Shown here: piece by piece, positions 3,750 to 61,255 of the stretch
Numbering within the stretch: position 1 is the stretch's first letter
Layout: every line of letters begins with the position of its first letter
Assembly (NCBI RefSeq): GCF_936925435.1
Contig: NZ_CAKZHQ010000003.1
Coordinates: 1-64,000 of the forward strand
Reading direction: 5' to 3'
Length of the DNA: 64,000 bases
Source of the DNA: an uncultured Ramlibacter sp.
GTDB lineage: Bacteria; Pseudomonadota; Gammaproteobacteria; Burkholderiales; Burkholderiaceae_C
Notes under the pieces: model-generated
The model's database searches: none
What the model saw: the letters and a program-made list of their open reading frames with translations, nothing else
What the model was told of the DNA's origin: nothing
Translations under genes and position numbers: made by a program

Positions 3750-4636
3750 CGGTGTGCCTTGATGGATGCCAGGATGCCCAGGGTGAACAGCACGCAGGCG
3801 GCCGATTGGGCCAGGCTGGGCCAGCGGCCGTCCCAGGCAAAAGAATAGAGCAACGCGAACAAGGTTTCGCTGACGATCAGCTGGCCGCACAGGCTGGCCG
3901 ACAGGCGCCGGCTGGCAATGTTCCACAGGAGGGTTGCCAGCCAGGCCGAGCCAAAGCCTGTCGCTATGCAAATGATAGCAAACCGCGGCCATTCCGAGCG
4001 GGAGAACAGCTCTTTTGCCTCTGATCCGGCGGCCAACCAGAGGGCCAGCGCGCCCAGGCCTGTGGCCACGCCCAGCCAGTTGGCCCAGTCGGTGGCGCGC
4101 ACCTCGGGGTGGCGCTTGAGCCAGGTCGAATTGAGGATGGCAAAGGCGGTCCAGCAGGCCATGGCCGCCACCGCCAGCGCGATGCCGCGCCAGTAGCTGG
4201 CGTCCGCTGCGGTCTGCAGCCCGCCGTGCGGGGCCCCCATCATCAGCGCCAGGCCGGCCAGCGTCAGCACCAGGCCGGGCGCCAGCGCCGCCCAGCGCAG
4301 GTGGCCTGGCTTGCCCAGCAGCATGACCCACAGCGGGATGGTGCCGATGATGAGCGTGGGCACCTCGGTGCCAGCATCGCGGATGGCCAATACCAGCAGC
4401 AGATAGTAGCCGCCAAAGCCCAGCAGGCTCATGCCCAAGGCGGCGCCGGCTTGCTGCCATGTCGGCAGGCGGCGCGGCCGCAACAACAGCAAGAGCACGC
4501 CGGCCACCGCGCCATAGGCGGCAAAGCGGCCGGCGCTCAGGTCGACCGAGGAATAAGCCGCCACCATGCGCGGCGCCACGAAGACCAGTCCCCACAGGGC
4601 GCCAGCCGCCAGGCCGGCCAGGATGCCCGTCAACAC
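3746..4636 (-). CDS. DMT-superfamily (EamA) transporter
   Basis: Inner-membrane carrier of about 296 residues with ten predicted membrane helices in two EamA repeats. Examples are GILAGLAAGALWGLVFVAP at the N-terminus and LSASLCGQLIVSETLFALLY in the second repeat. The usual length of the family is 280-310. No ATG fits the N-terminus; I use the GTG at 4636 (product begins VLTGILAG), 11 bases after the upstream SDR gene stops. A TTG one codon later is also possible. DMT proteins mostly export metabolites such as amino acids. The stretch near 3963-4019 is AT-rich and contains a dispersed repeat copy in antisense orientation, encoding FAIICIA with rare codons. Confidence 0.86.
   Translation of the reverse strand: MLTGILAGLAAGALWGLVFVAPRMVAAYSSVDLSAGRFAAYGAVAGVLLLLLRPRRLPTWQQAGAALGMSLLGFGGYYLLLVLAIRDAGTEVPTLIIGTIPLWVMLLGKPGHLRWAALAPGLVLTLAGLALMMGAPHGGLQTAADASYWRGIALAVAAMACWTAFAILNSTWLKRHPEVRATDWANWLGVATGLGALALWLAAGSEAKELFSRSEWPRFAIICIATGFGSAWLATLLWNIASRRLSASLCGQLIVSETLFALLYSFAWDGRWPSLAQSAACVLFTLGILASIKAHR
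3963..4019 (+). repeat. Dispersed 17-nt arm plus hairpin repeat, copy 1 (inside DMT transporter gene)
   Basis: The arm GCTATGCAAATGATAGC (3963-3979) is followed by a GC-rich part containing CCATTCCGAGCGGG and a GAGC...GCTC hairpin ending in TTTT. It runs opposite to the transporter gene. The transporter codons here (TTT, ATT, ATA, ACA) are rare for this genome. See the other copies at 13259, 28678, 35861, 48458, 57217 and 60002. Confidence 0.6.
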
Positions 4637-4647
4637 GGATCTGCTTT

Positions 4648-5430
4648 TTACAAAGCGAAGCCGTCGTCGGCAGCGATGATGGCGCCGTTGATGAAGTGGC
4701 TCTGGCTGCTGGCCAGCAGCACCACCAGCGCGTCCAGGTCTTCGGGCTGGCCGACGCGCTTGCGCGGCAGCATCTGCATCAGCCTCTGGCCCTGCTCGGT
4801 CTGCCAGTGGTGGTGGTTGATCTCGGTGTCGATGTAGCCCGGGCAAATGGCGTTGGTGTTGATCTCGAAGCGGCCCCATTCCAGCGCCATGGCCTTGGTC
4901 ATGTGGACCACGGCCGCCTTGCTCATGCAATAGGCGCCGATCTGCGGCAGCACCTTCAGGCCGGCCATCGAGGCGATGTTGATGATGCGCCCGCCGGTGT
5001 AGGTGCCCGGCGCCGCGCCGCGCGCGCGCGCCAGCATGCGCTTGCCCACTTCCTGCGCCACGAAAAAGGCGCCCTTGACGTTGGTGTCGAAGATGAAGTC
5101 GTAGTCGTCCTCGCCCACGTCTTGCAGGCGCTGGGTGGTCGAGACGCCGGAGTTGTTGACCAGGATGTCGATCGAGCCGACTTCGGTCTCGGCATGGGCG
5201 ACGGCCGACTTGATGCTGTCCAGGTTGGTCACGTCCAGCTGCGTCACATGGGCATCGCCGCCCTCGGCCTCGATCTGCGCGCGCAGCTCCTTGAGGCGCT
5301 CGACCCGCCGACTGGCCAGCACGACGGCGGCGCCGGCGCGGGACAGGGCCCGGGCGAACTGCGCGCCCAGGCCGCTGGAGGCGCCAGTCACAAAGGCGAC
5401 GCGGCCGGATAAATCGATGCTGTACGCCAC
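4648..5430 (-). CDS. Short-chain dehydrogenase/reductase (SDR)
   Basis: Classical SDR of 260 residues, an NAD(P)(H)-dependent oxidoreductase. The dinucleotide motif TGASSGLG is at residues 15-22, the structural NNSG at 92-95, and the catalytic residues are Ser154 (NIASMAG), Tyr167 and Lys171 (YCMSK). The start is GTG at 5430, with GGAG five bases upstream. It opens a minus-strand operon with a DMT exporter and a thioesterase. It is divergent from the ETF-ubiquinone oxidoreductase gene, sharing a 126-bp region with a TetR-type palindrome, which fits a role in fatty-acid or acyl-CoA oxidation. The substrate is not evident. Confidence 0.9.
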   Translation of the reverse strand: MAYSIDLSGRVAFVTGASSGLGAQFARALSRAGAAVVLASRRVERLKELRAQIEAEGGDAHVTQLDVTNLDSIKSAVAHAETEVGSIDILVNNSGVSTTQRLQDVGEDDYDFIFDTNVKGAFFVAQEVGKRMLARARGAAPGTYTGGRIINIASMAGLKVLPQIGAYCMSKAAVVHMTKAMALEWGRFEINTNAICPGYIDTEINHHHWQTEQGQRLMQMLPRKRVGQPEDLDALVVLLASSQSHFINGAIIAADDGFAL

Positions 5431-5453
5431 AGGAGTCTCCTGACTAAAAATAA

Positions 5454-5470
5454 GAACGACCGTTCGGTTA
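5454..5470. promoter_or_regulatory. TetR-type operator palindrome between SDR and ETF-QO genes
   Basis: The 17 bases GAACGACCGTTCGGTTA contain the perfect palindrome ACCG-TT-CGGT (5459-5468) in the short divergent intergenic region. ACCGNNCGGT-like cores are common for TetR-family repressors, several of which control fatty-acid degradation in betaproteobacteria. The position allows control of both genes. The regulator is not encoded in this window; the assignment is inference. Confidence 0.45.
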
Positions 5471-5556
5471 CCACCGTCTGCCACTCTAAAATGCCTGGGC
5501 CCGGCGGCAGCCACCGCCCACCCGCGAGTGCAAACAATTATCAGCGAGAGAGCTCC

Positions 5557-7254
5557 ATGACCCACGAAGAAATACTGGCGCAGTTCGGACCGCGCGAAGC
5601 AATGGAATACGACGTGGTGGTGGTCGGCGGCGGCCCCGGCGGCCTGGCCACGGCCATCCACCTCAAGCAGCTGGCGGCCGCGCATGGCAAGGAGGTGTCG
5701 GTGGTGGTGCTGGAGAAGGGCTCCGAGCCCGGCGCCCACATCCTGTCGGGCGCCATCATGGACCCGCGCGCCCTGAGCGAGCTGTTCCCCGACTGGAAGG
5801 AACGCGGCGCGCCGCTGAACCAGCCGGTGACCGACGACGCCATGGTGTTCCTGGGCGAGAACTCGGCGTTCCGCACGCCCAATATCTTCCTGCCCGCGTG
5901 CTTCGAGAACCACGGCAACTACATCGTCAGCCTGGGCAACGTGACCCGCTGGCTGGCCCAGCAGGCCGAAGCCCTGGGCGTGGAGATCTTCCCGGGCTTT
6001 CCGGCGGCCGAAGTCCTGTACAACGCCGACGGCTCGGTCAAGGGCGTGGCCACCGGCAACATGGGCGTGGGCAAGGACGGCGAGCCCACCGACAGCTTCC
6101 AGCTGGGCATGGAACTGCATGCCAAGTACACCATCTTCGCCGAGGGCTCGCGCGGCCATCTGGGCAAGCAGTTGATCGGCCGCTTCAAGCTGGACGCCGG
6201 CAAGGATCCGCAGACCTACGGCCTGGGCGTCAAGGAAGTGTGGGAGATCGACCCCAAGCGTCACACGCCGGGCTTCGTCATGCACACCGCCGGCTGGCCC
6301 ATGGACAACAGCACTTACGGCGGCGCCTTTCTGTACCACATGGAAGGCAACAAGGTGGTGCTGGGCTTCATCACCGGCCTGGACTACAGCAACCCCTACC
6401 TGAGCCCCTTCGAGGAATTCCAGCGCTGGAAGACGCACGCCAACATCCGCTGGTACCTCGAAGGCGACACCGAGCAGGGCATCAATCCCGGCAAGCGCCT
6501 GGAATACGGCGCGCGCGCCATCACCGCCGGCGGCCTGATGAGCCTGCCCAAGCTGGTCTTCCCCGGCGGCGCCCTGGTCGGCTGCGATGCGGGTTTTCTC
6601 AACGTCAGCCGCATCAAGGGCAGCCATGCCGCCATCAAGACCGGCATGCTGGCCGCGCAGGCAGCCTACGACGCCATCACCGCCGGTCGCCAGCACGACG
6701 AACTGGACGCCTACCCCAAGGCCTTCGAAAAGAGCTGGCTGCACGAGGAGCTGAGCAAATCGCGCAACTTCAAGGCCTGGTTCAAGAAGGGCCTGCTGGT
6801 GGCCACGCTGATGAACGGCATCGAGCAATGGCTGCTGCGCGGCCGCATGCCCTGGACGCTGCGCCGCGACAAGCCCGACCACGCCGCCCTGAAGCCGGCA
6901 TCGCAGTGCAAGCCCATCGTCTACCCCAAGCCCGACGGCAAACTGACCTTCGATCGGCTCTCATCGGTGTTCATCTCCAACACCAACCACGCCGAGGAGC
7001 AACCGGCCCATCTGACACTCAAGGATGCGTCGGTGCCGGTCAACGTCAATCTGGCGCGCTTTGCCGGTCCCGAGGCCCGCTACTGCCCGGCCGGCGTGTA
7101 CGAGTTCGTCAAGAACCCGGACAACACCGACCGCCTGCAGATCAACGCGCAGAACTGCGTGCATTGCAAGACCTGCGACATCAAGGATCCCACCCAGAAC
7201 ATCGTCTGGGTCACGCCCGAAGGCGGCGGCGGGCCCAACTACACCAACATGTAG
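5557..7254 (+). CDS. Electron-transfer flavoprotein:ubiquinone oxidoreductase
   Basis: 565-residue membrane-associated flavoprotein that passes electrons from ETF (reduced by acyl-CoA and other dehydrogenases) to ubiquinone. Near the N-terminus is the FAD Rossmann motif VVVVGGGPGGLATAIHL (about residues 20-36). The central part carries conserved GLGVKEVWEI and FPGGALVGCDAGFLNV. The C-terminus has the [4Fe-4S] ligands as YCPAGVYEF and NCVHCKTCDIKDP. Length matches the family (about 550-600). I start at the ATG at 5557, with GAGAGAG upstream, rather than the in-frame ATG at 5491. The divergent neighbour is an SDR. Confidence 0.96.
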   Translation: MTHEEILAQFGPREAMEYDVVVVGGGPGGLATAIHLKQLAAAHGKEVSVVVLEKGSEPGAHILSGAIMDPRALSELFPDWKERGAPLNQPVTDDAMVFLGENSAFRTPNIFLPACFENHGNYIVSLGNVTRWLAQQAEALGVEIFPGFPAAEVLYNADGSVKGVATGNMGVGKDGEPTDSFQLGMELHAKYTIFAEGSRGHLGKQLIGRFKLDAGKDPQTYGLGVKEVWEIDPKRHTPGFVMHTAGWPMDNSTYGGAFLYHMEGNKVVLGFITGLDYSNPYLSPFEEFQRWKTHANIRWYLEGDTEQGINPGKRLEYGARAITAGGLMSLPKLVFPGGALVGCDAGFLNVSRIKGSHAAIKTGMLAAQAAYDAITAGRQHDELDAYPKAFEKSWLHEELSKSRNFKAWFKKGLLVATLMNGIEQWLLRGRMPWTLRRDKPDHAALKPASQCKPIVYPKPDGKLTFDRLSSVFISNTNHAEEQPAHLTLKDASVPVNVNLARFAGPEARYCPAGVYEFVKNPDNTDRLQINAQNCVHCKTCDIKDPTQNIVWVTPEGGGGPNYTNM

Positions 7255-7308
7255 GCGGCGCGGCAGGGGTCCGCGAAAACCCGTAGTCGGGGGCCCGTCC
7301 GGCCGGGC

Positions 7309-7314
7309 CATAAT
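7309..7314 (+). promoter_or_regulatory. Likely -10 box of the TRAP operon promoter
   Basis: CATAAT lies 78 bases before the TTG start of the substrate-binding gene and just upstream of the operator palindrome at 7320. I see no convincing -35 hexamer at the usual spacing, so this is tentative. Confidence 0.3.
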
Positions 7315-7319
7315 CGGGA

Positions 7320-7338
7320 AAAGTTGTATGACAACTTT
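7320..7338. promoter_or_regulatory. Perfect 19-bp palindrome, GntR (FCD)-type operator candidate
   Basis: AAAGTTGTATGACAACTTT is an 8-bp inverted repeat around ATG. The core TTGTATGACAA fits TNGTNNNACNA, the usual operator pattern of GntR regulators of the FadR/FCD subfamily. It lies just downstream of the likely -10 box, where binding would block transcription of the TRAP operon. FCD regulators commonly sense organic or sugar acids, which are also typical TRAP substrates. Confidence 0.55.
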
Positions 7339-7391
7339 GGCGAACGTGGCCCCAATGGCCATGCGCAACCCTTCCCCTCCAGGAGACAAAC

Positions 7392-8366: not shown

Positions 8367-8387
8367 GCTCCGGCGACGACCCAACAC

Positions 8388-8415
8388 ACCGCCCGGCGAC
8401 CCCGGGCGGTTTTTT
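8388..8415 (+). terminator. Intercistronic terminator-like hairpin just before the TRAP small permease
   Basis: ACCGCCCGG (8388-8396) pairs with CCGGGCGGT (8402-8410) over a five-base loop, followed by six Ts (8410-8415). The ATG of the next gene is at 8417. It looks like a Rho-independent terminator that would be partial, leaving more binding protein than permease. The 3' arm GGGCGG is also the only plausible Shine-Dalgarno for the next gene. Confidence 0.75.
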
Positions 8416-8416
8416 C

Positions 8417-10218: not shown

Positions 10219-10223
10219 CGCGG

Positions 10224-10229
10224 CTATAC
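10224..10229 (+). promoter_or_regulatory. Probable -10 box of the gcv operon
   Basis: TATACT lies about seven bases before the start of the glycine riboswitch. The -35 region would overlap the end of the dctM gene, where I see no strong hexamer. Confidence 0.45.
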
Positions 10230-10235
10230 TCGCCG

Positions 10236-10444
10236 CGTCAGGAGAGAGTTCCTTCGCGGAACCACCGAAGGCGCAGGCCCCCAGCCGAACGCTCAGGTAC
10301 CCAGGACTGACAAGGCGCTTCCATCGCGGGGCGTTCACCTTGCTGGAGAGAGGCCTGCCGCCCCCGTGGCGCAGCAGTCCCACCGAAGGAGCAACCCCCG
10401 TTTCGCACGGGGCGAATCTCTCAGGTAAAGCGGACAGCAGGGGC
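10236..10444 (+). ncRNA. Tandem glycine riboswitch
   Basis: Two similar aptamers lie in tandem in the gcvT leader. The first (about 10237-10311) has CAGGAGAGAG, ACCACCGAAGGCGCA and CTCAGGTACCCAGGACTGAC. The second (about 10340-10443) has CTGGAGAGAGGC, CACCGAAGGAGCAA and ATCTCTCAGGTAAAGCGGACAG. These are the conserved GGAGAG, CCGAAGG and CTCAGGTAAA-GGACAG blocks of the glycine riboswitch class. Downstream, CAGGGGC (10438-10444) can pair with GCCCCTG (10474-10480), next to the GGAGAG ribosome-binding site, and no T-run follows. Control is therefore probably translational, with glycine turning on gcvTHP. Confidence 0.93.
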
Positions 10445-10491
10445 CGCCCATGGTCTGTACCATGGTTTCGTTCGCCCCTGGAGAGTCACGC

Positions 10492-11622
10492 GTGCCAGCC
10501 ACCCCATCCAGCCTTTTGCAAACCCCGCTGCATGCCCTGCATGTGGAGCTCGGCGCCCGCATGGTGCCCTTCGCCGGCTATTCCATGCCAGTGCAATACC
10601 CGGCCGGCCTGATGGCCGAGCACCAGCAGACTCGCAGCGCCGCCGGCCTGTTCGACGTCTCGCACATGGGCCAGCTGCGCTTGGCGGGGCCCGATGCTGC
10701 CGCCGCGTTCGAGTCGCTGATGCCGGTCGACGTGATCGACCTGGCCGTGGGCAAGCAGCGCTACGGCCTGCTGCTGAGCGACGAGGGCGGGATCATCGAC
10801 GACCTGATGTTCGTGCGCAGGGAAGAAGACATCTTCGTGATCGTCAATGGCGCCTGCAAGGTGAGTGACATTGCCCACATCCAGTCGCGCATAGGCACAC
10901 GCTGCGAAGTCATCCCCATGCCGGAGCGCGGCTTGCTGGCCCTGCAGGGACCGCAGGCGGTGACGGCGCTGTCGCGGCTGCTGACCGGGGTGGAGAAGCT
11001 GGTTTTCATGACCGGCGGCGCCTTCACCTGGGAAGGCACGGATCTGTACATCACGCGCAGCGGCTACACCGGCGAGGACGGCTTCGAGATTTCGGTGGCC
11101 GATACCCACGCGCAGCTGCTGGCCCGCACCCTGCTGGCCCAGCCCGAAGTCAAACCCATCGGCCTGGGCGCGCGCAATTCGCTGCGGCTGGAAGCTGGGC
11201 TGTGCCTGTACGGCAACGACATCGACACGACCACCACGCCGGTGGAGGCGGCCCTCACCTGGGCCATCCAGAAGGTGCGGCGCAGCGGCGGCGCGCGCGC
11301 CGGCGGCTTTCCCGGCGCCGCCAAGGTGCTGGCCCAACTCGATGGCACAGTGCCTTTGGCGCGCAAGCGCGTCGGCCTGGTGGCGCTGGAGCGCATTCCG
11401 GTGCGCGAGCCGGCCCAGTTGCAGGACCTGGAGGGCCGGCCCATCGGCGCCGTCACCAGCGGCCTGCTGGGCCCGACCGTGGACACGCCAGTGGCCATGG
11501 GCTATGTGGGCGCGGCTTTTGCATCGCCGGGCACACGCCTCAATGCCATCGTGCGGGGCAAGAGTGTGCCCATGGAGGTGCGCGCCATGCCCTTCGTGCC
11601 GGCGCGCTACCACCGCGGCTGA
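10492..11622 (+). CDS. gcvT: Glycine cleavage system T protein (aminomethyltransferase)
   Basis: 376-residue T protein, which takes the aminomethyl group from lipoylated H protein and gives methylene-tetrahydrofolate and ammonia. The start is GTG at 10492, preceded by GGAGAG; an in-frame ATG at 10450 falls inside the riboswitch expression platform and is rejected. Hallmarks are MVPFAGYSMPVQY near the N-terminus, the FDVSHMGQ motif with the folate-site Asp, SGYTGEDGFE in the middle, and GLGARNSLRLEAGLCLYGNDID. It heads the gcvT-gcvH-gcvP operon under the glycine riboswitch. Confidence 0.97.
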   Translation: MPATPSSLLQTPLHALHVELGARMVPFAGYSMPVQYPAGLMAEHQQTRSAAGLFDVSHMGQLRLAGPDAAAAFESLMPVDVIDLAVGKQRYGLLLSDEGGIIDDLMFVRREEDIFVIVNGACKVSDIAHIQSRIGTRCEVIPMPERGLLALQGPQAVTALSRLLTGVEKLVFMTGGAFTWEGTDLYITRSGYTGEDGFEISVADTHAQLLARTLLAQPEVKPIGLGARNSLRLEAGLCLYGNDIDTTTTPVEAALTWAIQKVRRSGGARAGGFPGAAKVLAQLDGTVPLARKRVGLVALERIPVREPAQLQDLEGRPIGAVTSGLLGPTVDTPVAMGYVGAAFASPGTRLNAIVRGKSVPMEVRAMPFVPARYHRG

Positions 11623-11658
11623 AAAAATTGGAATCTGACCCCCATTAGGAGAAGCACC

Positions 11659-12033: not shown

Positions 12034-12049
12034 TTCCACCGGAGCCACC

Positions 12050-14938
<2,889 letters not shown>

Positions 14939-14986
14939 GGTCGCGCGATCGACCCGCTGATCCCCATCGTCATTGCCGGCGCCGCC

Positions 14987-27830: not shown

Positions 27831-29113
27831 ACGGCATCGCCATCACGCCACCGATGACGGCGCAGCGCGCCGGCGAGATCGCGCACACGCTGGACCTGCG
27901 CGCCCTGCCGCCCGACTTCTACGCAAACCCCTATCCGGTCTATGCCCATCTGCGCGCCACCGAGCCAGTCAAGCGCATGCCGGACGGTTCGTATCTGCTC
28001 ACCCGCTATGCCGACCTGGTGAGCGTGTACCGCGACGCCGAGAGCTTCAGCTCGGATAAAAGGGTGGAGTTCACACCAAAGTACGGGGAAGGCGCCCCGT
28101 TACTGGAGCACCACACGACCAGCCTGGTGTTCAACGACCCGCCGCTGCACACGCGGGTGCGCAAGCTGATCATGGGTGCGCTGACGCGGCGCGCCATCGC
28201 CGACATGGAGCCGGGCCTGGTCACGCTGGTGGACGGCCTGCTCGATGCGATCGAAGCCCAAGGCGGTGGCGACCTGGTCGAGGATTTCGCATCGGCGATT
28301 CCCGTGGAGATCATCGGCAACCTGCTGGGCGTTCCGCACGCAGACCGCACGCCCTTGCGCGCGTGGTCGCTGGCCATCCTGGGCGCGCTCGAACCCAGGC
28401 TCACGCCCGAACAGGAAGCGCTGGGCAATCGCAGCGTTAACGAGTTCAGCGCCTATCTCAAAACCTTGGTCGCTGAGCGCCGCAAGCGCCCCGGCGACCC
28501 GGAGCACGACGTGCTGACCAGGCTGATCCAAGGAGAGCAAGCAGGTGAAACGCTCAGCGAGTCCGAGCTCTTGCATAACTGCGTCTTCATCCTCAACGCC
28601 GGCCACGAGACCACCACCAACCTGATAGCCAACGCCCTGGTGGCGCTGCAGGAGTGGCCGCAGGAAAAGTCCGGATTGCTATCGAAATTGAAGCATCACA
28701 GGGAGGATCTCCGGGCTCTGGAGGCCGATTTGACCCTTGCAGTCGACGAGTTCCTGCGCTTCGAGTCGTCCAACCAGTTGGGCAACCGGCGCGCCCGGCG
28801 CGACTGCGAAGTCGGTGGCGTGGCGCTGCCGGCGGGCGCCCTGGTGACACTGTGCATAGGCGCGGCCAACCGCGACCCGGCGCAGTTCGACGACCCCGAC
28901 ACGCTGCGGCTGGACCGCGAGCCCAATCGCCATCTGGCCTTCGGCTTGGGCATCCACCAGTGCGCCGGCCTGAGCCTGGCGCGGCTGGAAGGCCGCATCG
29001 CCATCGGCCGCTTCCTGCAGCGTTTTCCCGGCTACCGGCTGACGGCCAACCCGACCCGTGGCGGTCGCGCACGTTTCAGAGGCTTCTTGCAGGCGCCGTT
29101 TGCGCTGGCCTAA
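27827..29113 (+). CDS. Cytochrome P450
   Basis: 428-residue soluble bacterial P450. The I-helix oxygen-activation motif AGHETT is at residues 258-263, the ExxR pair is Glu308/Arg311, and the heme-binding loop FGLGIHQC ends at Cys379. HHTTSLVFNDPPLHTRVRK (B-C region) resembles the CYP families that act on terpenes, fatty acids or aromatics. The start is GTG at 27827, overlapping the stop of the hydrolase gene; ATG at 27854 is an alternative. Residues about 284-300 lie in a dispersed-repeat patch, which makes the J-helix region longer than usual. No ferredoxin partner is adjacent. Confidence 0.93.
   Translation: MNGIAITPPMTAQRAGEIAHTLDLRALPPDFYANPYPVYAHLRATEPVKRMPDGSYLLTRYADLVSVYRDAESFSSDKRVEFTPKYGEGAPLLEHHTTSLVFNDPPLHTRVRKLIMGALTRRAIADMEPGLVTLVDGLLDAIEAQGGGDLVEDFASAIPVEIIGNLLGVPHADRTPLRAWSLAILGALEPRLTPEQEALGNRSVNEFSAYLKTLVAERRKRPGDPEHDVLTRLIQGEQAGETLSESELLHNCVFILNAGHETTTNLIANALVALQEWPQEKSGLLSKLKHHREDLRALEADLTLAVDEFLRFESSNQLGNRRARRDCEVGGVALPAGALVTLCIGAANRDPAQFDDPDTLRLDREPNRHLAFGLGIHQCAGLSLARLEGRIAIGRFLQRFPGYRLTANPTRGGRARFRGFLQAPFALA
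28678..28733 (+). repeat. Dispersed 17-nt arm plus hairpin repeat, copy 3 (inside P450 gene)
   Basis: The arm GCTATCGAAATTGAAGC (28678-28694) is followed by CTCC-GGGCTCT-GGAG (hairpin) and GGCCGATTTGACC. It is in frame and encodes about residues 284-302 with codons rare for this genome (CTA, TTG, AAA). One arm base differs from the inverted-repeat ideal. Confidence 0.5.
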
Positions 29114-34765: not shown

Positions 34766-35263
34766 ATGAAGCTGGGCATCATCTACGCGCGCTCGCGCAA
34801 CGGCGTGATCGGCAAGGACAACGCCATGCCCTGGCGGCTGCCGGAGGACCTGGCCCACTTCAAGACCGTCACCATGGGCGCGCCCGTCCTCATGGGCCGC
34901 AAGACCTGGGATTCGCTGCCGCCGAAGTTTCGCCCGCTGCCGGGCCGCCGCAACATCGTCATCACGCGCCAGAGCGACTGGCTGGCCGCAGGCGCCGAGC
35001 GCGCCGGCTCGCTCGAAGAGGCGCTGGCGCTGTGCGCAGGCCAGGCCCAGACCTGGGTCATCGGCGGCGCCCAGATCTACCGTCAGGCCCTGGCGCTGGC
35101 CGACCGTGCCGAGGTCACCTTCATCGACGCCGACTACGAAGGCGATGCCTTCGCGCCCGAGCTCGATGCGCGCTGGCAGGAAGTGGCGCGCAGCGAACAC
35201 ACGGCGGCCAGCGGCCTGCCCTACAGCTTCGTCACCTACAACAACACACAACGGGGAGACTGA
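34766..35263 (+). CDS. folA: Dihydrofolate reductase
   Basis: 165-residue DHFR regenerating tetrahydrofolate with NADPH. The N-terminus IIYARSRNGVIGKDNAMPW has the folate-site loop, the catalytic acid is the Asp in RLPEDLAHFK, and GRKTWDSLP and WVIGGAQIYRQAL carry the NADPH contacts. Coupled to thyA (one base between) and followed by DUF4337 with one base between, so it is the middle gene of a likely three-gene unit. Confidence 0.98.
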   Translation: MKLGIIYARSRNGVIGKDNAMPWRLPEDLAHFKTVTMGAPVLMGRKTWDSLPPKFRPLPGRRNIVITRQSDWLAAGAERAGSLEEALALCAGQAQTWVIGGAQIYRQALALADRAEVTFIDADYEGDAFAPELDARWQEVARSEHTAASGLPYSFVTYNNTQRGD

Positions 35264-35264
35264 C

Positions 35265-35873
35265 ATGTCAGCAGGCGGATTCCACGTGCACGGCCCGCAC
35301 GACCACGAACTCGAACATGCGCGCGAGCATGCGGCGCACGGCGGCGACAAGGGCCATGGTATCGGCGGCGGCAGCCTGACCAGCCAGGTCGCCATGTTCA
35401 CCGCGGTGATCGCCACCGTCGGCGCCATCTTCTCCTACATGGGCGGCGCGACCCAGGCCAATGCCGGGCTGTACAAGAACAACGCCGCCATCAAGAAGAC
35501 CGAAGCTTCCAACCAGTGGAATTACTTCCAGTCCAAGAGCACCAAGCAATCGCTGGCCGAGGTCTCGCGCGACCTGTCGCCGGAAGCAGGCAAGGCCGTC
35601 TACCAGGCCAAGATGGAGCGCTACGAGAAGGAAAAGAAAGAGATCGAGGCCGAGGCGCGCAAGCTGGAGGCCACCTCAGCGGACTGGGACAAGCGAAGCG
35701 ACGAGCAGATGCACCAGCACCACCGCTGGGCCCAGGCCACCACGGCGCTGCAGGTCACGATCGCGCTGGCGGCGATCGCCCTGTTGACGAAAAAGCGCTG
35801 GCTGGAATGGGGCATGGCCGGCATGGGCCTGCTGGGCCTGGGCATCGGCGTGCTCGCAATGCTCCGTATTTGA
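35265..35873 (+). CDS. DUF4337 membrane protein
   Basis: 202-residue protein of the DUF4337 family. A His-rich N-terminus (HVHGPHDHELEHAREHAAHGG) is followed by one membrane helix (about residues 41-58), a charged coiled-coil (about 95-145, EKEKKEIEAEARKLEATS) and two further helices at the C-terminus. The function is unknown, and the His cluster could bind metal. It starts one base after folA. Its TGA stop lies inside a dispersed-repeat arm (35871-35873). Confidence 0.88.
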   Translation: MSAGGFHVHGPHDHELEHAREHAAHGGDKGHGIGGGSLTSQVAMFTAVIATVGAIFSYMGGATQANAGLYKNNAAIKKTEASNQWNYFQSKSTKQSLAEVSRDLSPEAGKAVYQAKMERYEKEKKEIEAEARKLEATSADWDKRSDEQMHQHHRWAQATTALQVTIALAAIALLTKKRWLEWGMAGMGLLGLGIGVLAMLRI

Positions 35874-35914
35874 TAGCAGCCCAGGCCCATTGGGAGGGGG
35901 TTACAGGCCTTTTT
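35861..35914 (+). repeat. Dispersed 17-nt arm plus hairpin repeat, copy 4 (end of DUF4337 gene)
   Basis: The arm GCTCCGTATTTGATAGC (35861-35877) contains the DUF4337 stop codon. It is followed by AGGCCCATTGGGAGGGGG and AGGCCTTTTT, so it probably works as the terminator of the thyA-folA-DUF4337 unit. Confidence 0.6.
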
Positions 35915-35951
35915 CCCTGAAAGCGCGGCGGCGCCGCGCCCCCAGATGTCC

Positions 35952-47732: not shown

Positions 47733-48563
47733 TCAGCGCGTCCCCCCGATCCAGCCGCTGTACGCCGGATGCTCGCGCAGCGTCCGGAAGCAAAAGCCCT
47801 TGTCCTTGAGTCCCACGATCAGCGGTTCCAGCACGGCCGGCGCCCAGGGGTCCTTGCGCGACCAGATGCCCAGGTGCGCCAGCAGGATGTCGCCGGCGCG
47901 GATGTCGCGCAAAGCCTTTTTGAGCAGCGCATCATTGCTGGAAGACTCGCTGGGCAGCTCGTCGCCCAGGAAGCCGGCCGGCGCCCAGCCCACGTGCGCA
48001 TAGCCGCATGCCTTGGCGGCTGCGAGCAGGCTCGGCGAGGTCTTGCCGCCGGGCGCGCGGTACAGAGGCAAGGGTTTCTTGCCCGTGATGTCCTGCAGGC
48101 GCTGCGCCGCCTTGCCGATCTCGGTGCAGTACTGGCCTGCTGTCCATGTCGCCTCGACAGCGGCGTTCGGGCCGGCCGAGGGACGGACGCGAAAACGGGG
48201 TGGATCGCCGGCCACGTCGGCGCGCCAGTACGTGTGGTCCCAGGTGTGGGAAGCGAACTCGTGGCCCTCGGCTGCACGCGCCTTCCACCAGGGCGCCCAG
48301 TGCCCGCCCAGGCTGCCGTCGCCGGCCTTGGTGGGCTCGTTGGCGCCGAAGAAGGTGACAACAACCTGCTGGCGCTGCAGCACCTGGGCCACCAGGGGTG
48401 CCACTTCCATGTGGCCGGTGTCGAATGTCAGGTAGAGCGGCTTTTCGCAGGCGTTCTGGCCTGCAGCCCCCGTGGAATGGACGCAGCCCGCTACCAAAAG
48501 CGTAGCAAATGCCAGCTTCCGCAGGGCTTCAGCGCGGCGCGTGGTCCAGCGTCCAGACGCCAT
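47733..48563 (-). CDS. Polysaccharide deacetylase family lipoprotein
   Basis: 276-residue NodB-fold protein. A lipobox VAGC follows a short signal sequence, so it is probably lipid-anchored in the envelope. NodB motif 1 reads LTFDTGHMEVAP, with the second Asp of TFDDG replaced by Thr. Motif 2 is SHTWDH, the metal His pair, motif 3 YRAPGGKTSP, and the late His is in DILLAHLGI. The first Asp and both His are kept, so deacetylation of a glycan is still plausible. The ATG at 48563 overlaps the upstream propeller gene by 35 bases. A dispersed repeat falls in the signal peptide. Confidence 0.88.
   Translation of the reverse strand: MASGRWTTRRAEALRKLAFATLLVAGCVHSTGAAGQNACEKPLYLTFDTGHMEVAPLVAQVLQRQQVVVTFFGANEPTKAGDGSLGGHWAPWWKARAAEGHEFASHTWDHTYWRADVAGDPPRFRVRPSAGPNAAVEATWTAGQYCTEIGKAAQRLQDITGKKPLPLYRAPGGKTSPSLLAAAKACGYAHVGWAPAGFLGDELPSESSSNDALLKKALRDIRAGDILLAHLGIWSRKDPWAPAVLEPLIVGLKDKGFCFRTLREHPAYSGWIGGTR
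48458..48506 (-). repeat. Dispersed 17-nt arm plus hairpin repeat, copy 5 (inside deacetylase gene)
   Basis: On the minus strand the arm GCTACGCTTTTGGTAGC is followed by GGGCTGCGTCCATTCC and ACGGGGGCTGCAGGCC, the same order as copy 6. It encodes the end of the signal peptide and lipobox (FATLLVAGC) with AT-rich, rare codons. Confidence 0.6.
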
Positions 48564-51817: not shown

Positions 51818-52204
51818 TGGTGGAGCTGGCGGGAATTGAACCCGCGTCCGCAAGCCTTTTTCGCACAGTTCTACATGTTTAGCCGTCTGATTTGGATCTC
51901 GCTTCCCCTAGCGCACAGCGGCACGCTCTAGAGGACGCCAGCAACCTATTTTCTCGTCCCGTGCCAAGTTACCCGACACGGAGCCAGCCTCTGAAATTAT
52001 CTTTGCAGCCGGGAGCCCCTAGCTTGCGCTAAAGACCCCTTGCCCAGCCCAGAGGCCTGCTGTTGCAAAGCTCACCGGCAATTAAGCGGCGAGTGCGAAA
52101 CGTTCGTCGTTTGCAGTTAGTTTGTTTGAATCTGTTTTACGAGCGCATTCAGCTCGACATGCCCTGCCGCGCGTCCGAACCCACGTCGAAACCAGTGCAG
52201 CCCC
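51818..52204 (-). ncRNA. ssrA: Transfer-messenger RNA (tmRNA)
   Basis: About 387-nt tmRNA. The 5' end GGGGCTG (52204-52198) pairs with CAGCTCC before the CCA end (51818-51824), forming the tRNA-like acceptor stem. The T-loop GGTTCAATTCCCGCC lies at the 3' end. The internal message encodes the tag ANDERFALAA followed by TAA (52083-52112 region). It rescues stalled ribosomes. It lies directly after gph on the same strand, and its promoter probably overlaps the gph 3' end. Confidence 0.97.
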
Positions 52205-52217
52205 AGGAAGGCATAGT

Positions 52218-53605: not shown

Positions 53606-53630
53606 GGACGTCATTTTCGCGGAGCCAATG

Positions 53631-53658
53631 AAAAAAGCCCCGTTGCCGGGGCTTTTTT
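53631..53658. terminator. Bidirectional-looking terminator after ompA-like gene
   Basis: AAAAAAGCCCCG pairs with CGGGGCTTTTTT over four loop bases. It follows the stop of the OmpA-like gene by 18 bases and separates it from ubiG on the same strand. Confidence 0.92.
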
Positions 53659-53675
53659 CGGGCAATCCTTGCGGA

Positions 53676-54335: not shown

Positions 54336-54561
54336 GGTTCTCCTCTTGGGGAAAAAGCCGCAGCTGCGCTGCGTTAAACATTACGATTAAGGTGACCATC
54401 ACCGAAAACGTCAAAGTTATTGTGCCACACGTCCTTACACAAGCAATGGGTACCGGGTGCAAGCAACGTAGGACAAAACCTAATTAGGGAGGAATGTTGC
54501 TGGTGCGCGACAGGCAAGGCTTGCCCGTAAAATCCGGACTCCGCGCGCCTCAATCCTCCTC

Positions 54562-57213
<2,652 letters not shown>

Positions 57214-57216
57214 TCA

Positions 57217-57270
57217 GCTACTTTTTTCATAGCGCCTCAAGCCCATTGGACGGGGGCTTGAGGCTTATTT
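57217..57270 (+). repeat. Dispersed 17-nt arm plus hairpin repeat, copy 6 (gyrA-pheA gap)
   Basis: The arm GCTACTTTTTTCATAGC (57217-57233) starts three bases after the gyrA stop. The hairpin GCCTCAAGCCC (57234-57244) / GGGCTTGAGGC (57254-57264) follows, with CCATTGGACGGGGGCT between, then TTATTTG. It is the cleanest copy. It probably weakens read-through from gyrA to pheA, and the pheA ribosome-binding site GAGG lies in the 3' arm. Confidence 0.75.
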
Positions 57271-57271
57271 G

Positions 57272-58363
57272 ATGGGCAACATGGGTAAGAACCTGGCGCA
57301 ACTGCGGACCGAAATCGACGCCGCGGACCGTGAGCTGCTGCGCGTGCTGAACCAGCGCGCTGCACTGGCCAATGAAGTGGGCGAAGTCAAGCGCGCGGAA
57401 GGCTCGCCGGTGTTCCGGCCCGAGCGCGAAGCGCAGGTCATCAACGGATTGCAGGCGGCCAACCCCGGCCCGCTCAAGGCCGCCAACGTCGCCACCATCT
57501 GGCGCGAAATCATGTCGGCCTGCCGCGCCCTGGAGGCCCCGCAGCGCGTGGCCTACCTGGGCCCGGCCGGCACCTTCAGCGAGCAGGCGGCGCTGCAGTT
57601 CTTCGGCTCCAGCATCGAGCACGTGCCCTGCGTCAATTTCGACGAGGTCTTCCATGCGGCCACGGCCGGCACAGCCGACTTCGGCGTGGTGCCGGTGGAG
57701 AACAACACCGAGGGCGTGGTGACGCGCTCGCTCGACCTGCTGCTGGGCTCGCCTCTGCACATCGTCGGCGAGGTCAGCCTGCTGGTGCGCCACCACCTGC
57801 TGCGCCTGAGCGATTCGCTCGAAGGCATCGAGGTGGTGCTGGCCCATCCGCAGGCGCTGGCGCAATGCCAGGGCTGGCTGGCCAAGCACCTGCCCAAGGC
57901 CGAGCGCCGCGCCGTCTCCAGCAACGCCGAGGGCGCGCGCCTGGCAGCGGGCAACCCGGCCTGGGCCGGCATCGCCAGCGAACGCGCCGGCAGCGAGTTC
58001 GGCCTGCACACGGTGGTCCAGGCCATCCAGGACGACGCCTTCAACCGCACCCGTTTCGCCGTCGTCTGCCTGCCCCAGGTGCTGGCCGCGCCGCAGGCCT
58101 CGGGCAGCGACTGCGTCAGCCTGGTGGTCTCGGTGCCCAACAAGCCCGGCGCGGTCCACGACATCCTGGTGCCGCTCAAGCAGCACGGCGTGTCGATGAC
58201 GCGCTTCGAATCCCGCCCGGCCCGTTCGGGCCAGTGGGAATACTATTTCTACATCGACATCCAGGGCCATCCTTCGCAGCCGCATGTGGCGGCGGCGCTG
58301 GCCGACCTGCGGGGGCTTTGCGCCTTCTACAAGGTGCTCGGTACCTATCCGGTGGGCGAATAA
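57272..58363 (+). CDS. pheA: Chorismate mutase / prephenate dehydratase (P-protein)
   Basis: 363-residue bifunctional enzyme of phenylalanine biosynthesis. The N-terminal AroQ mutase (about 1-85) has LAQLRTEIDAADRELLRVLNQRAALANEV. The dehydratase domain (about 95-270) shows AYLGPAGTFSEQAA, VVPVENNTEGVVTRSLDLL and SNAEGARLAA. A C-terminal ACT domain (about 285-360), beginning near LVVSVPNKPGAVHDIL with the ESRP motif, senses phenylalanine. I start at the ATG at 57272, with a TTG just before and an ATG three codons later as alternatives. tyrA follows with three bases between. Confidence 0.98.
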   Translation: MGNMGKNLAQLRTEIDAADRELLRVLNQRAALANEVGEVKRAEGSPVFRPEREAQVINGLQAANPGPLKAANVATIWREIMSACRALEAPQRVAYLGPAGTFSEQAALQFFGSSIEHVPCVNFDEVFHAATAGTADFGVVPVENNTEGVVTRSLDLLLGSPLHIVGEVSLLVRHHLLRLSDSLEGIEVVLAHPQALAQCQGWLAKHLPKAERRAVSSNAEGARLAAGNPAWAGIASERAGSEFGLHTVVQAIQDDAFNRTRFAVVCLPQVLAAPQASGSDCVSLVVSVPNKPGAVHDILVPLKQHGVSMTRFESRPARSGQWEYYFYIDIQGHPSQPHVAAALADLRGLCAFYKVLGTYPVGE

Positions 58364-58366
58364 AGC

Positions 58367-59239
58367 ATGTTCGAGCAACTTGGTCTGATCGGCTGCGGCC
58401 TGATGGGCGGCTCCTTCGCGCTGGCGCTCAAGCGCGCCGGCCTGGTCAAGCGCGTGGTCGGCTACAGCAAGTCGCCCTCGACCACCGAGCGCGCGCGCCA
58501 GATGGGCGTGATCGACGTCGAGGCGCCCTCGGCCCTGCTGGCCGTGTCGGGTGCCGACATCGTGCTGCTGGCCGTGCCGGTGGCCGCCACCGAGGCCACC
58601 CTCAAGGCCATCAAGCACCTGGTCAGCAAGGACATGCTGATCATGGACGTGGGCTCGACCAAGCGCGACGTGGTCGACGCCAGCCGCCGCGTGCTGCGCG
58701 AGCACGTGGGCTCCTTCGTGCCCTGCCACCCCATCACCGGCAAGGAAGTCTCGGGCGTGGAACACGCCGACGCCGACCTGTATGGCGGCCGCCAGGTCAT
58801 CCTCACACCGATCGAGCGGACCCAGGTGGTGCAGCTGAACAAGGCCACCGCACTGTGGGAGGCACTGGGCTGCAATGTGCTCAAGATGTCGCCGGAGGCG
58901 CACGATGCCGCCTTCGCCGCCGTCAGCCACCTGCCGCACCTGATTTCCTTCGCGCTCATGAACAGCATCACCAGCCAGGCCCAGGGCAAGGACTTCCTGT
59001 CGCTAGCCGGCCCGGGCTTTCGCGACTTCACCCGCATCGCCGCCAGCGACCCCAAGATGTGGCGGGACGTGCTGATGGCCAACCGCCAGGAACTGCTGGC
59101 CCAGGCCGAGGTGTTCCGGCGCAGCCTGCAGGCGCTGGAGACCATGATCGACAAGGGCAATGCCGAGGCGCTGGAAAGTCTGATCGAGCACGCCAGCCAG
59201 ACCCGCGCCCACTGGCGCATGGGCGCGAAAAAGGGATGA
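58367..59239 (+). CDS. tyrA: Prephenate dehydrogenase
   Basis: 290-residue NAD(P)-dependent dehydrogenase of tyrosine biosynthesis. The Rossmann motif is LIGCGLMGGSFALALK near the N-terminus, the active-site region is PCHPITGKEVSGVEHADADLYGG, and the C-terminal helical domain carries SHLPHLISFALMNSI. It lacks mutase and ACT domains, so it is the short monofunctional type. It lies in the pheA-tyrA-aroA run, so both branches of aromatic amino-acid synthesis are expressed together. Confidence 0.96.
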   Translation: MFEQLGLIGCGLMGGSFALALKRAGLVKRVVGYSKSPSTTERARQMGVIDVEAPSALLAVSGADIVLLAVPVAATEATLKAIKHLVSKDMLIMDVGSTKRDVVDASRRVLREHVGSFVPCHPITGKEVSGVEHADADLYGGRQVILTPIERTQVVQLNKATALWEALGCNVLKMSPEAHDAAFAAVSHLPHLISFALMNSITSQAQGKDFLSLAGPGFRDFTRIAASDPKMWRDVLMANRQELLAQAEVFRRSLQALETMIDKGNAEALESLIEHASQTRAHWRMGAKKG

Positions 59240-59257
59240 GTTCCCGCGCGAGGCCCC

Positions 59258-61255
59258 ATGTTCGCCACTGAGTTCCTGGATCTTGCGCCGCTGGCGTCCG
59301 CCGGCGGCACGGTGGTGCTGCCCGGCTCCAAGAGCATCTCCAACCGGGTGCTGCTGCTGGCCGCGCTCAGCGGCGGCACAACCACGGTCCACGACCTGCT
59401 GGACTCCGACGACACCCGCGTGATGCTCGATGCGCTGCGCGCGCTGGGCTGCGGCGTGCGCCAGGACGGCGCCCTGGTCGAGATCACCGGCCTGGGCGGC
59501 ACGCCCCCCAATGCACCGGCCAAGCTGTTCCTGGGCAATGCCGGCACCGCCATGCGGCCGCTGGCCGCCGCCCTGGCCGTGCTGGGCGGCGACTTCGAAT
59601 TGAGCGGCGTGGCACGCATGCACGAGCGGCCCATAGCCGACCTGGTCGACGCCCTGCGCCAGTTGGGCTGCAGCATCGATTACCTGGGCAACGACGGTTA
59701 CCCGCCGCTGCGCATCGGCCGCCCTGCCCTGCGGCTGGACCAGCCCATCGCGGTGCGCGGCGACGTCTCCAGCCAGTTCCTCACCGCCTTGCTGCTGGCC
59801 CTGCCCCTGGTGGCGAAGCAGGACGTGGGGATCGAGGTGGTCGGCGAGCTGATCTCCAAGCCCTACATCGAGATCACGCTGAACCTGCTGCAGCGCTTTG
59901 GCATCGCCGTGCGGCGCGAAGGCTGGCAGCGCTTCACCATTGCGGCCGGCAGCAGCTACCAGTCGCCCGGCAGCATCCACGTCGAGGCCGACGCCTCGTC
60001 TGCTAGCTATTTCATAGCGCTCGGAGCCCTGGCAGCGGGTGCTCCAGGCCGAAATGGCATCCGGATCGAGGGTGTGGGCGAGACCTCCATCCAGGGCGAC
60101 ATCCGCTTCGTGGAAGCGGCCCGCCAGATGGGCGCGCTGGTCAGCGGTGGCCCCAACTGGCTGGAGATCCGGCGCGGCGCCTGGCCCCTCAAAGCCATCG
60201 ACCTGGACTGCAACCACATCCCCGACGCCGCCATGACACTGGCGGTGATGGCCTTGTACGCCGACGGCCCCAGCACGCTGCGCAACATCGCCAGCTGGCG
60301 CGTCAAGGAAACCGACCGGCTCGCCGCCATGGCCACCGAGCTGCGCAAGCTCGGCGCCACGGTGGAGGAAGGCGCGGACTTCCTGCGCGTCACGCCGCCC
60401 CTGGCATGGACGGCTGGCTGTATCCACACCTACGACGACCACCGTGTCGCCATGTGCTTCTCGCTGGTCGCCTTCAACCCGGCCGGCCTGCCGGTGCGCA
60501 TCGAAGACCCCAAGTGCGTGGCCAAGACCTTCCCGGACTACTTCGAGGCCCTGTTCTCTGTGGTCCAGACACCAGCGACCCGCATCCCGGTCATCTGCGT
60601 GGACGGCCCCACCGCGTCGGGCAAGGGCACGCTGGCCTCCGAGCTGGCACACCGGCTGGGCTACCACTACCTGGACTCCGGCGCGCTCTACCGCATCACC
60701 GCCCTGGCGGCCCTGCGCGCCGGCCTGGCGCTGGATACCACTGATGAGCAGGCCGTCGCCAGCCTGGCCCGGTCCCTGCCGGTGCGCTTCCTTGGTGGCC
60801 AGGTGCTGCTGGACGGCGAGGATGTGGGCGCGGCGATCCGCACCGAGGAAGCGGGCATGAACGCCTCCCGGGTCTCGGCCCTGCCGGCCGTGCGCACTGC
60901 CCTGGTCGCCCTGCAGCACAGCTTCCGGCAACTGCCCGGCCTGGTGGCCGACGGCCGCGACATGGGCACAGTGATCTTCCCGGACGCGCCACTCAAGATC
61001 TACCTCACGGCGAGCGCCGCCCAGCGCGCGCAAAGACGCTATAAGCAGTTGATTTCAAAGGGTATTTCGACTACAATCGACGCTCTTCGCGCTGACCTTG
61101 AGGCCAGGGATGCCAGGGACATGTCCCGCAGCACCGCCCCCTTGAAGCCCGCGCAAGACGCCCTCCTGCTGGATAACTCCGGCCAAACGGTTGAAGAATC
61201 GGTTGGCCAGGTGCTCCGGTGGTGGGAGGGCAAACAGGTTTTCAAGTCCGCTTGA
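59258..61255 (+). CDS. aroA-cmk: Fused 3-phosphoshikimate 1-carboxyvinyltransferase / cytidylate kinase
   Basis: 665-residue bifunctional protein. Residues about 1-440 are EPSP synthase, with [28 protein letters not shown], the DASSASYF segment and [15 protein letters not shown]. Residues about 448-665 are cytidylate kinase, with the P-loop [23 protein letters not shown] and [18 protein letters not shown]. The frame is continuous across the junction ([17 protein letters not shown]), so the fusion is real. AroA makes the substrate of chorismate synthase; Cmk phosphorylates CMP and dCMP. A dispersed repeat lies inside the AroA part. rpsA follows, as cmk-rpsA does in E. coli. Confidence 0.96.
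60002..60056 (+). repeat. Dispersed 17-nt arm plus hairpin repeat, copy 7 (inside aroA)
   Basis: The arm GCTAGCTATTTCATAGC (60002-60018) is followed by GGAGCCCTGGCAGCGGGTGC and TCCAGGCC, with GGAGC / GCTCC able to pair, then GAAAT. It encodes the conserved AroA motif SASYFIA with codons rare in this genome (TCT, GCT, TAT, ATA), so the protein is unaffected. Confidence 0.6.

What the first reader, a model, noticed from the sequence alone, without database searches (positions are those of the whole stretch)
3963..60056. A dispersed ~55-bp repeat (17-nt GCTA...TAGC arm plus GC hairpin) occurs seven times, five times inside genes as in-frame patches
Seven places share one structure. The 17-nt arms are GCTATGCAAATGATAGC (3963), GCTACCAATTCGATAGC (13259), GCTATCGAAATTGAAGC (28678), GCTCCGTATTTGATAGC (35861), GCTACGCTTTTGGTAGC (minus, 48506), GCTACTTTTTTCATAGC (57217) and GCTAGCTATTTCATAGC (60002). 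Each is followed by a GC-rich hairpin resembling CCATTGGACGGGGGCT and often a T-rich end. Arm length is exactly 17 in every copy. In the five coding copies (DMT exporter, gcvP, P450, deacetylase, aroA) the reading frame is kept and the codons are rare for the genome. In aroA the conserved AroA motif SASYF is preserved, so the repeat seems to have overwritten coding DNA with near-synonymous sequence rather than inserted. I think short palindromic repeats of this sort exist elsewhere in Comamonadaceae, but I cannot name a family.
Basis: partly seen in the sequence, partly recalled or inferred. Interest (0 to 1): 0.75.

Follow-up and report, generated by a model that had tools for sequence, protein, structure and literature searches.

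The report
Long DNA signature rewritten inside genes
Some bacteria of the Comamonadaceae family carry many copies of a roughly 62-letter DNA signature, between and inside genes, apparently written into existing sequence rather than inserted and spelled differently in different genomes, which suggests a large self-recognition code of unknown purpose.

Summary
A weight matrix built without the window scores the seven places 21.9 to 75.3; the next best place there scores -22.3. The unit is 62-66 nt: a 17-nt palindrome GCTAY-N7-RTAGC, a GC-rich middle and a T-rich tail. The host genome has at least 150 copies.

"Overwritten, not inserted" is right; "near-synonymous" is not, except in aroA. In 18 genes no patch shows a consistent gain of 20-21 residues; ten equal in length at least one orthologue from an arm-poor genome, and mitochondrial GcvP aligns without a gap. 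Protein identity is 29-37% in the patch, 74-77% beside it (10 genes per relative).

Four other arm-rich genomes (one same-genus, three other genera) have the arm at most of the same codons compared, with a different middle in each ("dialect", read by eye). Of 59 same-genus relatives 58 show no enrichment. Among 94 strong copies the closest pair is 81% identical.

This does not look like a mobile repeat. It most resembles DNA-uptake or other self-marking sequences evolving in place, but is much longer. Function is inferred: comEC and a pilin family do not separate carriers, and some viral contigs carry the motif. A probable fragment was reported in 2017 without function.

The parts
3963..4024 (+). 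Degenerate copy inside the EamA/DMT transporter gene, antisense to the gene
   Evidence: Arm GCTATGCAAATGATAGC, 10 of 10 specified bases; weight-matrix score 21.9; Pfam EamA. No orthologue was recovered in G049, G005 or G021.
13259..13320 (+). Degenerate copy inside gcvP: arm and tail present, middle native-like
   Evidence: Score 23.8; arm 10 of 10 at the same codons in G049 and G092, 8 of 10 in G005 and 6 of 10 in G021 and G102; PDB GcvP chains differ by 0 or 1 residue here.
28678..28739 (+). Degenerate copy inside a cytochrome P450 gene
   Evidence: Score 24.0; the G049 orthologue has an arm (9 of 10) and a copy in the G049 spelling at the same codons; G021 3 of 10.
35861..35922 (+). Copy over the 3' end of ORF 35106-35873; its arm holds the stop codon
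   Evidence: Score 57.3; ORF list. That the ORF is a gene rests on codon usage alone.
48445..48506 (-). Copy encoding the N-terminal, signal-peptide-like region of a polysaccharide deacetylase
   Evidence: Score 60.9; arm 10 of 10 at the same codons in G049, G092, G102 and G103, 3 of 10 in G005; Pfam Polysacc_deac_1. 'Signal-peptide-like' is by eye.
57217..57278 (+). Near-consensus copy directly after the gyrA ORF, overlapping the start of the next ORF (chorismate mutase / prephenate dehydratase)
   Evidence: Score 75.3; ORFs; Pfam.
60002..60063 (+). Degenerate, possibly nascent copy inside aroA (SASYF region)
   Evidence: Score 22.0; 7 of 10 in G049, G005 and G021, and no arm in any of the 22 same-genus orthologues aligned.

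Best explanation
A genome-wide DNA signature of some Comamonadaceae. Shown: a 62-66 nt motif (17-nt palindrome GCTAY-N7-RTAGC, variable GC-rich middle, conserved tail) occurs at 150 or more places in the host, mostly between genes but also in frame inside genes. At the gene sites compared it replaces native sequence with little or no change in length. Many sites are shared between genera, while the middle differs between genomes. Inferred: the DNA sequence itself is selected or driven because some cell component recognises it. The nearest precedent is the DNA-uptake signal of Neisseria and Haemophilus: fragments carrying the motif are taken up preferentially, recombine, and so push each site toward the receptor's preference, the protein adjusting where it tolerates change. 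Where the recogniser is lost, as may be the case in most of this genus, the sites decay in place. I put in-place evolution under DNA-level constraint at about 0.85 and the uptake-signal role at about 0.35-0.4.
For: Length: against G005 and G021 (arm-poor, same genus) the patch equals at least one orthologue in 10 of 18 genes, differs by 1 in four and is longer by 2-6 in four. PDB chains differ by 0 or 1 residue at the GcvP site, lack 1 at PutA and 3-4 at D-amino-acid aminotransferase. Arm at orthologous codons (at least 8 of 10 specified bases): G049 14 of 17 genes, G092 5 of 7, G102 4 of 5, G103 4 of 4; G021 1 of 16, G005 2 of 16, none of these three being 10 of 10. HscA, ThiL and the deacetylase are 10 of 10 in all five arm-rich genomes, PuuD 9 of 10 in the host and 10 of 10 in the other four. 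Middles differ by genome at shared sites (by eye). Arm counts over 147 genomes: host 165, G049 230, the other 58 same-genus relatives 1-32, each below its backwards control; of 28 other family genera 11 have 113-575 and two have 71 and 48; 59 genomes of other families 0-21. 94 strong copies: mean pairwise identity 62%, maximum 81%. Chromosomal strand is balanced: 49 of 96 on +, 29 of 65 neighbours alike. Identity to orthologues in weakly conserved columns 85/145 (G005) and 70/143 (G021), in strongly conserved ones 111/250 and 93/227. Uptake sequences are described as underrepresented in constrained coding sequence and modelled by molecular drive (PMC7811141, passages); dialects exist in Neisseriaceae (PMC3630211, passages).
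Against: No uptake data. comEC is found in 131 of 147 genomes: in all 15 with raised arm counts (in three pieces of different frames in G086) and in 116 of the other 132, so it does not discriminate. GspH pilins are in all 27 genomes searched, 11 arm-rich and 16 arm-poor. The motif is far longer than known uptake sequences. One spelling occurs in 85 stretches of viral contigs against 35 for the backwards control; 40 of 87 matches have a loosely defined tail, and in 6 of 9 loci looked at an ORF spans the motif; prophages and host flanks are not excluded. Columns of middling conservation match orthologues no better than strongly conserved ones (81/174 in G005, 60/166 in G021), so the column trend is weak. 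In other genera some patches are 4-9 residues longer (HscA and deacetylase in G092, PuuD in G102 and G092, deacetylase in G103), and ThiL, PuuD, HemD, MurU and others lie in length-variable loops, so insertions and deletions are not excluded there. Between co-directional genes the motif is sense in 16 and antisense in 7. Two genomes of other families exceed their control clearly (G127 10 against 4, G128 17 against 3).
Confidence: 0.4

Rival explanations
1. Chromosome-wide binding site of one or two double-stranded-DNA-binding proteins (chromosome organisation, segregation, replication or a global regulator). The two palindromic parts would be two dimer sites about 23 bp apart, and dialects would follow changes in the binding protein.
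For: 17-bp palindromic arm with an AT-rich centre and fixed spacing (147 of 150 matches are exactly 62 nt); chromosomal strand balanced; sites kept at orthologous codons.
Against: Known sites of this kind are much shorter (recalled); no cognate protein identified; absence of enrichment in 58 of 59 same-genus relatives would be odd for a core chromosome function.
Confidence: 0.25
2. An ancient small mobile element (MITE or REP type) inserted in the family ancestor and has been decaying since, with compensating deletions at gene sites.
For: 77 of the 96 best copies lie between genes or at gene edges by a heuristic; short element with internal inverted repeats; four gene sites are longer than the arm-poor orthologues by 2-6 residues, and single orthologues are shorter by up to 16 (MurU in G049).
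Against: No consistent gain of about 20 residues at any of 18 gene sites, nor against the PDB outgroups tried; no near-identical pair among 94 strong copies; different middles at shared sites; the one Y1 transposase gene found is not flanked by the motif.
Confidence: 0.12
3. Templated writing: single-stranded copies of a master sequence (retron-like or recombinase-driven) anneal to partly matching sites and convert them.
For: Replacement with little length change, dialects, and copies within ORFs of viral contigs. Strongly conserved columns match the arm-poor orthologues in 41-44% of cells, so targets may have been partly similar already.
Against: Fresh conversions should give near-identical 62-nt copies; the closest of 94 are 81% identical. 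Weakly conserved columns keep orthologue bases somewhat more often than strongly conserved ones. No master locus was identified or searched for.
Confidence: 0.1
4. An RNA element (terminator or processing hairpin) acting in transcripts.
For: Palindromic parts followed by a T-rich tail; of 27 copies between genes 16 lie sense between co-directional genes, 7 antisense.
Against: Inside genes it lies in both orientations (9 sense and 6 antisense of the 15 classed coding), within reading frames; no covariation in 18 copies; no Rfam match at any copy in the window.
Confidence: 0.08

Closest known systems
DNA uptake sequence (DUS) of Neisseriaceae
   Same: Many dispersed copies, in and between genes, with species dialects (PMC3630211, passages read).
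   Different: 10-12 bp against 62-66 nt with two palindromic parts; uptake function shown there, not here; unrelated sequence.
Uptake signal sequence (USS) of Haemophilus influenzae / Pasteurellaceae
   Same: Core plus AT-rich parts at fixed spacing; underrepresented in constrained coding DNA; modelled by molecular drive (PMC7811141, passages read).
   Different: 9-bp core with flanking AT tracts; no second GC-rich palindrome.
REP / REPIN elements with RAYT transposases
   Same: Short, palindromic, mostly between genes, many copies (recalled; abstracts seen).
   Different: The Y1 transposase gene found in the host is flanked by another repeat, and the motif replaces sequence rather than inserting.
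Spaced motif ATAGCT(N)22CAAAAG of Polaromonas naphthalenivorans CJ2 (PMC5217627, section 13 and passages read)
   Same: Found in a member of the same bacterial family; begins like the 3' half of the arm; 125 copies, 101 intergenic, 18 in genes. Probably the same element (inference; not aligned here).
   Different: Only a fragment was reported; no full motif, dialects, in-place evolution or function.
Beta-proteobacterial repeat element BRE (PMC3110155, section 14 read)
   Same: Dispersed in Comamonadaceae and sometimes inside genes.
   Different: 75-91 bp in Bordetella, often in tandem and of variable number; its sequence is not in the text and was not compared.

Membership tests
DNA uptake sequence (DUS/USS) | Many dispersed copies in both orientations | tested here: met
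   150 copies at E up to 1, 149 of them below 0.01, the tool's scoring cap; 49 of 96 on +
DNA uptake sequence (DUS/USS) | Evolves in place; coding frame kept | tested here: met
   18 genes; PDB outgroups for three genes; four genes are longer by 2-6 residues
DNA uptake sequence (DUS/USS) | Species dialects | tested here: met
   Different middles at the same codons in G000, G049, G092, G102, G103, read by eye from few copies
DNA uptake sequence (DUS/USS) | Raises DNA uptake or transformation | not testable with these tools
   Needs a competence assay
DNA uptake sequence (DUS/USS) | Short motif of about 10-30 bp | tested here: not met
   Conserved columns extend over about 64 nt, about 67 bits in model-selected copies
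DNA uptake sequence (DUS/USS) | Carriers have uptake machinery; a receptor tracks the motif | tested here: inconclusive
   comEC in 15 of 15 genomes with raised arm counts and 116 of 132 others; GspH in 27 of 27
DNA uptake sequence (DUS/USS) | Scarce in foreign (phage) DNA | tested here: inconclusive
   85 stretches against 35 for the control in viral contigs; some within ORFs
REP/REPIN with RAYT | Repeat flanks a RAYT gene of the same genome | tested here: not met
   One Y1_Tnp match in the host; best motif score in its 3.3-kb locus 4.2 bits
MITE / insertion element | Insertion at filled sites relative to empty sites | tested here: not met
   No consistent gain of about 20 residues in 18 genes; intergenic sites not tested
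MITE / insertion element | Terminal inverted repeats | tested here: not met
   Consensus ends are not inverted copies of each other, by eye; target duplications not tested
Known Rfam RNA family | Match at gathering score | tested here: not met
   Three matches in the window, none at a copy; the other copies were not scanned
Beta-proteobacterial repeat element BRE | 75-91 bp, often tandem | tested here: not met
   62-66 nt; closest neighbours among the 96 best copies are 920 nt apart; sequences not compared

The most novel reading that the evidence does not exclude
A new class of genomic self-identity code: a bipartite signature of more than 60 nt that a lineage keeps writing, in its own dialect, into fixed positions across the genome, overriding protein sequence inside core genes across genera, and which phages of these bacteria may copy.
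Probability: 0.35. Interest if true: 0.92.

Novelty: new variant of a known kind. Interest (0 to 1): 0.8.

Why it matters
Uptake signals are known from two bacterial families (recalled; PMC7811141 and PMC3630211 deal with these two). A third, in Comamonadaceae, with a far longer two-part motif, would open a natural comparison of how such signals arise, change dialect and vanish. If it is not an uptake signal, then an unknown recognition system is strong enough to dictate amino-acid sequence at orthologous loops of core enzymes in several genera, which also matters to anyone reading protein conservation in these genomes.

Tried and rejected
Hairpin-RNA reading: no covariation in the 18-copy alignment, no Rfam family at the window copies. 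RAYT-mobilised REP: the only Y1 transposase match is flanked by a different repeat. Insertion: disfavoured by lengths in orthologues and outgroups. Chance for the four weak window copies: R1 alone left 3963 and 28678 undecided; the independent weight matrix and, for 28678, the G049 orthologue settled it. For 3963 no orthologue was found, so its in-place origin is untested. comEC and GspH as marker genes: no separation. Paper searches for the element or for uptake sequences in Comamonadaceae: in the open-licence library only; PMC5217627 alone reported something that looks like part of it. PMC2755013 (passages) mentioned only CRISPR repeats.

Limits. R1 is tuned to the host's dialect, and one search scored at most 88 candidates per genome (host 88, G049 5, 59 others 0), so it says nothing about other dialects; arm counts do. 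The coding classification of the 96 best copies is a codon-usage heuristic; it called the deacetylase copy 'between'. The 94 copies were chosen by the model. Rows dropped: I aligned 16 of 26 matches and left out 10 with 35-45% identity as likely paralogues or too distant; I used 30 loci, and the G049 EarP, G021 ThiL and G005 TrmH matches had no locus and were not compared; one search covers the first 11 genes only. Tail filters are loose patterns of my own.
Full report
What is there. Extending the search to the genome shows one unit: GCTAY-N7-RTAGC, eight loosely conserved bases, a core near GTCCATTnGACGGGGGC, then TAGAGGCC-GATTT and an end near CTCnnAAA. A strict pattern finds 18 copies and none when read backwards. 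A covariance model made from those 18 finds 150 copies at E up to 1, of which 149 are below 0.01; 150 is the number the tool scored, so this is a lower bound. Of the 150, 147 are exactly 62 nt long. A weight matrix that leaves out the window scores the seven places from 21.9 to 75.3, with nothing else above -22.3 in the window, a maximum of -15.7 in DNA of arm-poor same-genus genomes and of -4.6 in 20 simulated windows. Seven in 64 kb would mean roughly 490 in the genome if the window is typical (inference).

Where the copies lie. By a codon-usage heuristic, 15 of the 96 best copies sit inside a reading frame, 4 more in frame but with a stop, and 77 between genes or at gene edges; the coding copies number 2, 3, 2 and 8 in successive quarters by score. 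On the chromosome orientation is balanced: 49 of 96 on the plus strand, 29 of 65 neighbouring pairs alike. Between co-directional genes 16 are sense and 7 antisense; inside genes 9 sense and 6 antisense. The 94 strong, full-length copies average 62% pairwise identity and the closest pair is 81% identical. A repeat that still spreads by copying should show some near-identical pairs.

Replacement, not insertion. I compared 18 gene copies codon by codon with orthologues. Against the arm-poor same-genus genomes G005 and G021 the patch has the same length as at least one orthologue in 10 genes (gcvP, HscA, Dat, OppD, PutA, TrmH, EarP, and the C13, C38 and C51 genes), differs by one residue in four (P450, deacetylase, Kef, MurU) and is longer by 2 to 6 in four (aroA, ThiL, PuuD, HemD). 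Single orthologues are shorter by more: 12 residues in G021 for the C38 gene, 16 in G049 for MurU. No gene shows a consistent gain of 20-21 residues. Gene names here are by resemblance; only the window genes were checked with Pfam. More distant relatives agree: PDB GcvP chains differ by 0 or 1 residue across the site, the mitochondrial one by 0; PutA chains of the best-scoring group have one residue fewer; two D-amino-acid aminotransferases have three and four fewer; mitochondrial Hsp70 is longer.

The DNA overrides the protein. For the first 11 genes (10 per relative), amino-acid identity in the patch is 53/185 to G021 and 72/196 to G005, against 74% and 77% in the flanks; to G049 it is 92/196 against 81%. 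Unrelated proteins therefore share peptides such as IA..VHSTGA.AE. In the deacetylase the motif encodes the signal-peptide-like N-terminus. The aroA copy is different: its arm is two synonymous changes away from the G049 sequence, and none of 22 same-genus orthologues has an arm, so it may be a site in the making. Dat is a second candidate for recent gain: the host copy scores 49 bits, while G049, G005, G021 and G092 match the arm in only 4-6 of 10 bases.

Old sites, changing spelling. G049, the one arm-rich same-genus relative found, has an arm (at least 8 of 10 specified bases) at the same codons in 14 of 17 genes; G092, G102 and G103, from three other genera, in 5 of 7, 4 of 5 and 4 of 4; G021 and G005 in 1 of 16 and 2 of 16, none of them 10 of 10. 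HscA, ThiL, the deacetylase and PuuD carry it in all five arm-rich genomes. The middle differs: in G049 it reads near TGCCCACG-CACAnTTGGCGCGCTC-TGCAGGCC, and other spellings appear in G092, G102 and G103. These were read by eye from a handful of copies, not modelled. Several patches in the other genera are 4-9 residues longer, so length is less strict there. Since arm-rich genera share sites, the state in G005 and G021 is probably loss by substitution; gain in place is best shown where outgroups or G049 lack the motif (GcvP, PutA, Dat, aroA).

Distribution. Arm counts over 147 genomes: host 165 (backwards control 48), G049 230 (41), the other 58 same-genus relatives 1-32, each below its control. 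Of 28 other family genera 11 have 113-575, two have 71 and 48, and 15 have 0-16. The 59 genomes of other families have 0-21, of which G127 (10 against 4) and G128 (17 against 3) clearly exceed their control. In 1.33 Mb of Comamonadaceae-type DNA around aroA (80 loci) the arm occurs 47 times in 34 loci, against 0 with the spacer one base shorter, 1 with it one base longer and 0-9 for other rearranged patterns; loci with the arm include records named Rhodoferax, Acidovorax, Polaromonas, Curvibacter and Extensimonas. The best-matching named AroA is that of Ramlibacter montanisoli (81%), so the host is Ramlibacter-like.

How it may work. A motif that stays at fixed positions, changes spelling across a genome, lies on both strands and overrides protein sequence in tolerant loops is best explained by selection or drive on the DNA itself. 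The known precedent is the uptake signal, described as underrepresented in constrained coding sequence and modelled by molecular drive (PMC7811141, passages), with dialects in Neisseriaceae (PMC3630211, passages). Weakly conserved columns keep the bases of arm-poor orthologues more often than strongly conserved ones (85/145 against 111/250 in G005; 70/143 against 93/227 in G021), which fits stepwise change better than block writing; but the trend is weak, since columns of middling conservation give 81/174 and 60/166. Against the uptake reading stand the length, the lack of a marker gene that tracks the motif and its presence in some viral contigs, within ORFs in 6 of 9 loci looked at, two of them terminase-like by eye. 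The function stays open.

What was known. No paper found describes the element. PMC5217627 (section 13 and passages read) lists ATAGCT(N)22CAAAAG in Polaromonas naphthalenivorans, 125 copies, 101 intergenic and 18 in genes, as a potential novel motif, and names Rhodoferax ferrireducens T118 as the genome with most motif pairs (140); this looks like part of the same element (inference). The BRE repeat (PMC3110155, section 14 read) is longer and often tandem. Searches: in the open-licence library only.

Noticed in passing
L037, L038, L039, L040, L042 (AroA of same-genus relatives G004, G011, G002, G007, G019): Other GC-rich stretches, several with inverted repeats, sit in frame inside aroA as insertions of about 16 to 30 codons, at sites different from the motif.
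   Followed up: no
L223:1124-1929 (host contig C5): The only Y1 transposase match in the host is flanked by inverted TAAATGGGGTCAGATTCCAATT-type repeats, apparently its own repeat family.
   Followed up: partly
G086:C1:1836740-1837544: comEC is split into three pieces of different frames in an arm-rich genome (113 arms): a pseudogene or a sequencing error.
   Followed up: no
L385, L349, L356, L359, L331, L373 (viral contigs): Copies of the arm with a downstream spelling seen in other Comamonadaceae lie within ORFs of viral contigs, two of them terminase-like by eye; no family search was run on them.
   Followed up: partly
10229-10447: Tandem glycine riboswitch aptamers upstream of ORF 10450-11622 and of gcvP further on.
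   Followed up: no
51818-52204: tmRNA gene on the minus strand.
   Followed up: no
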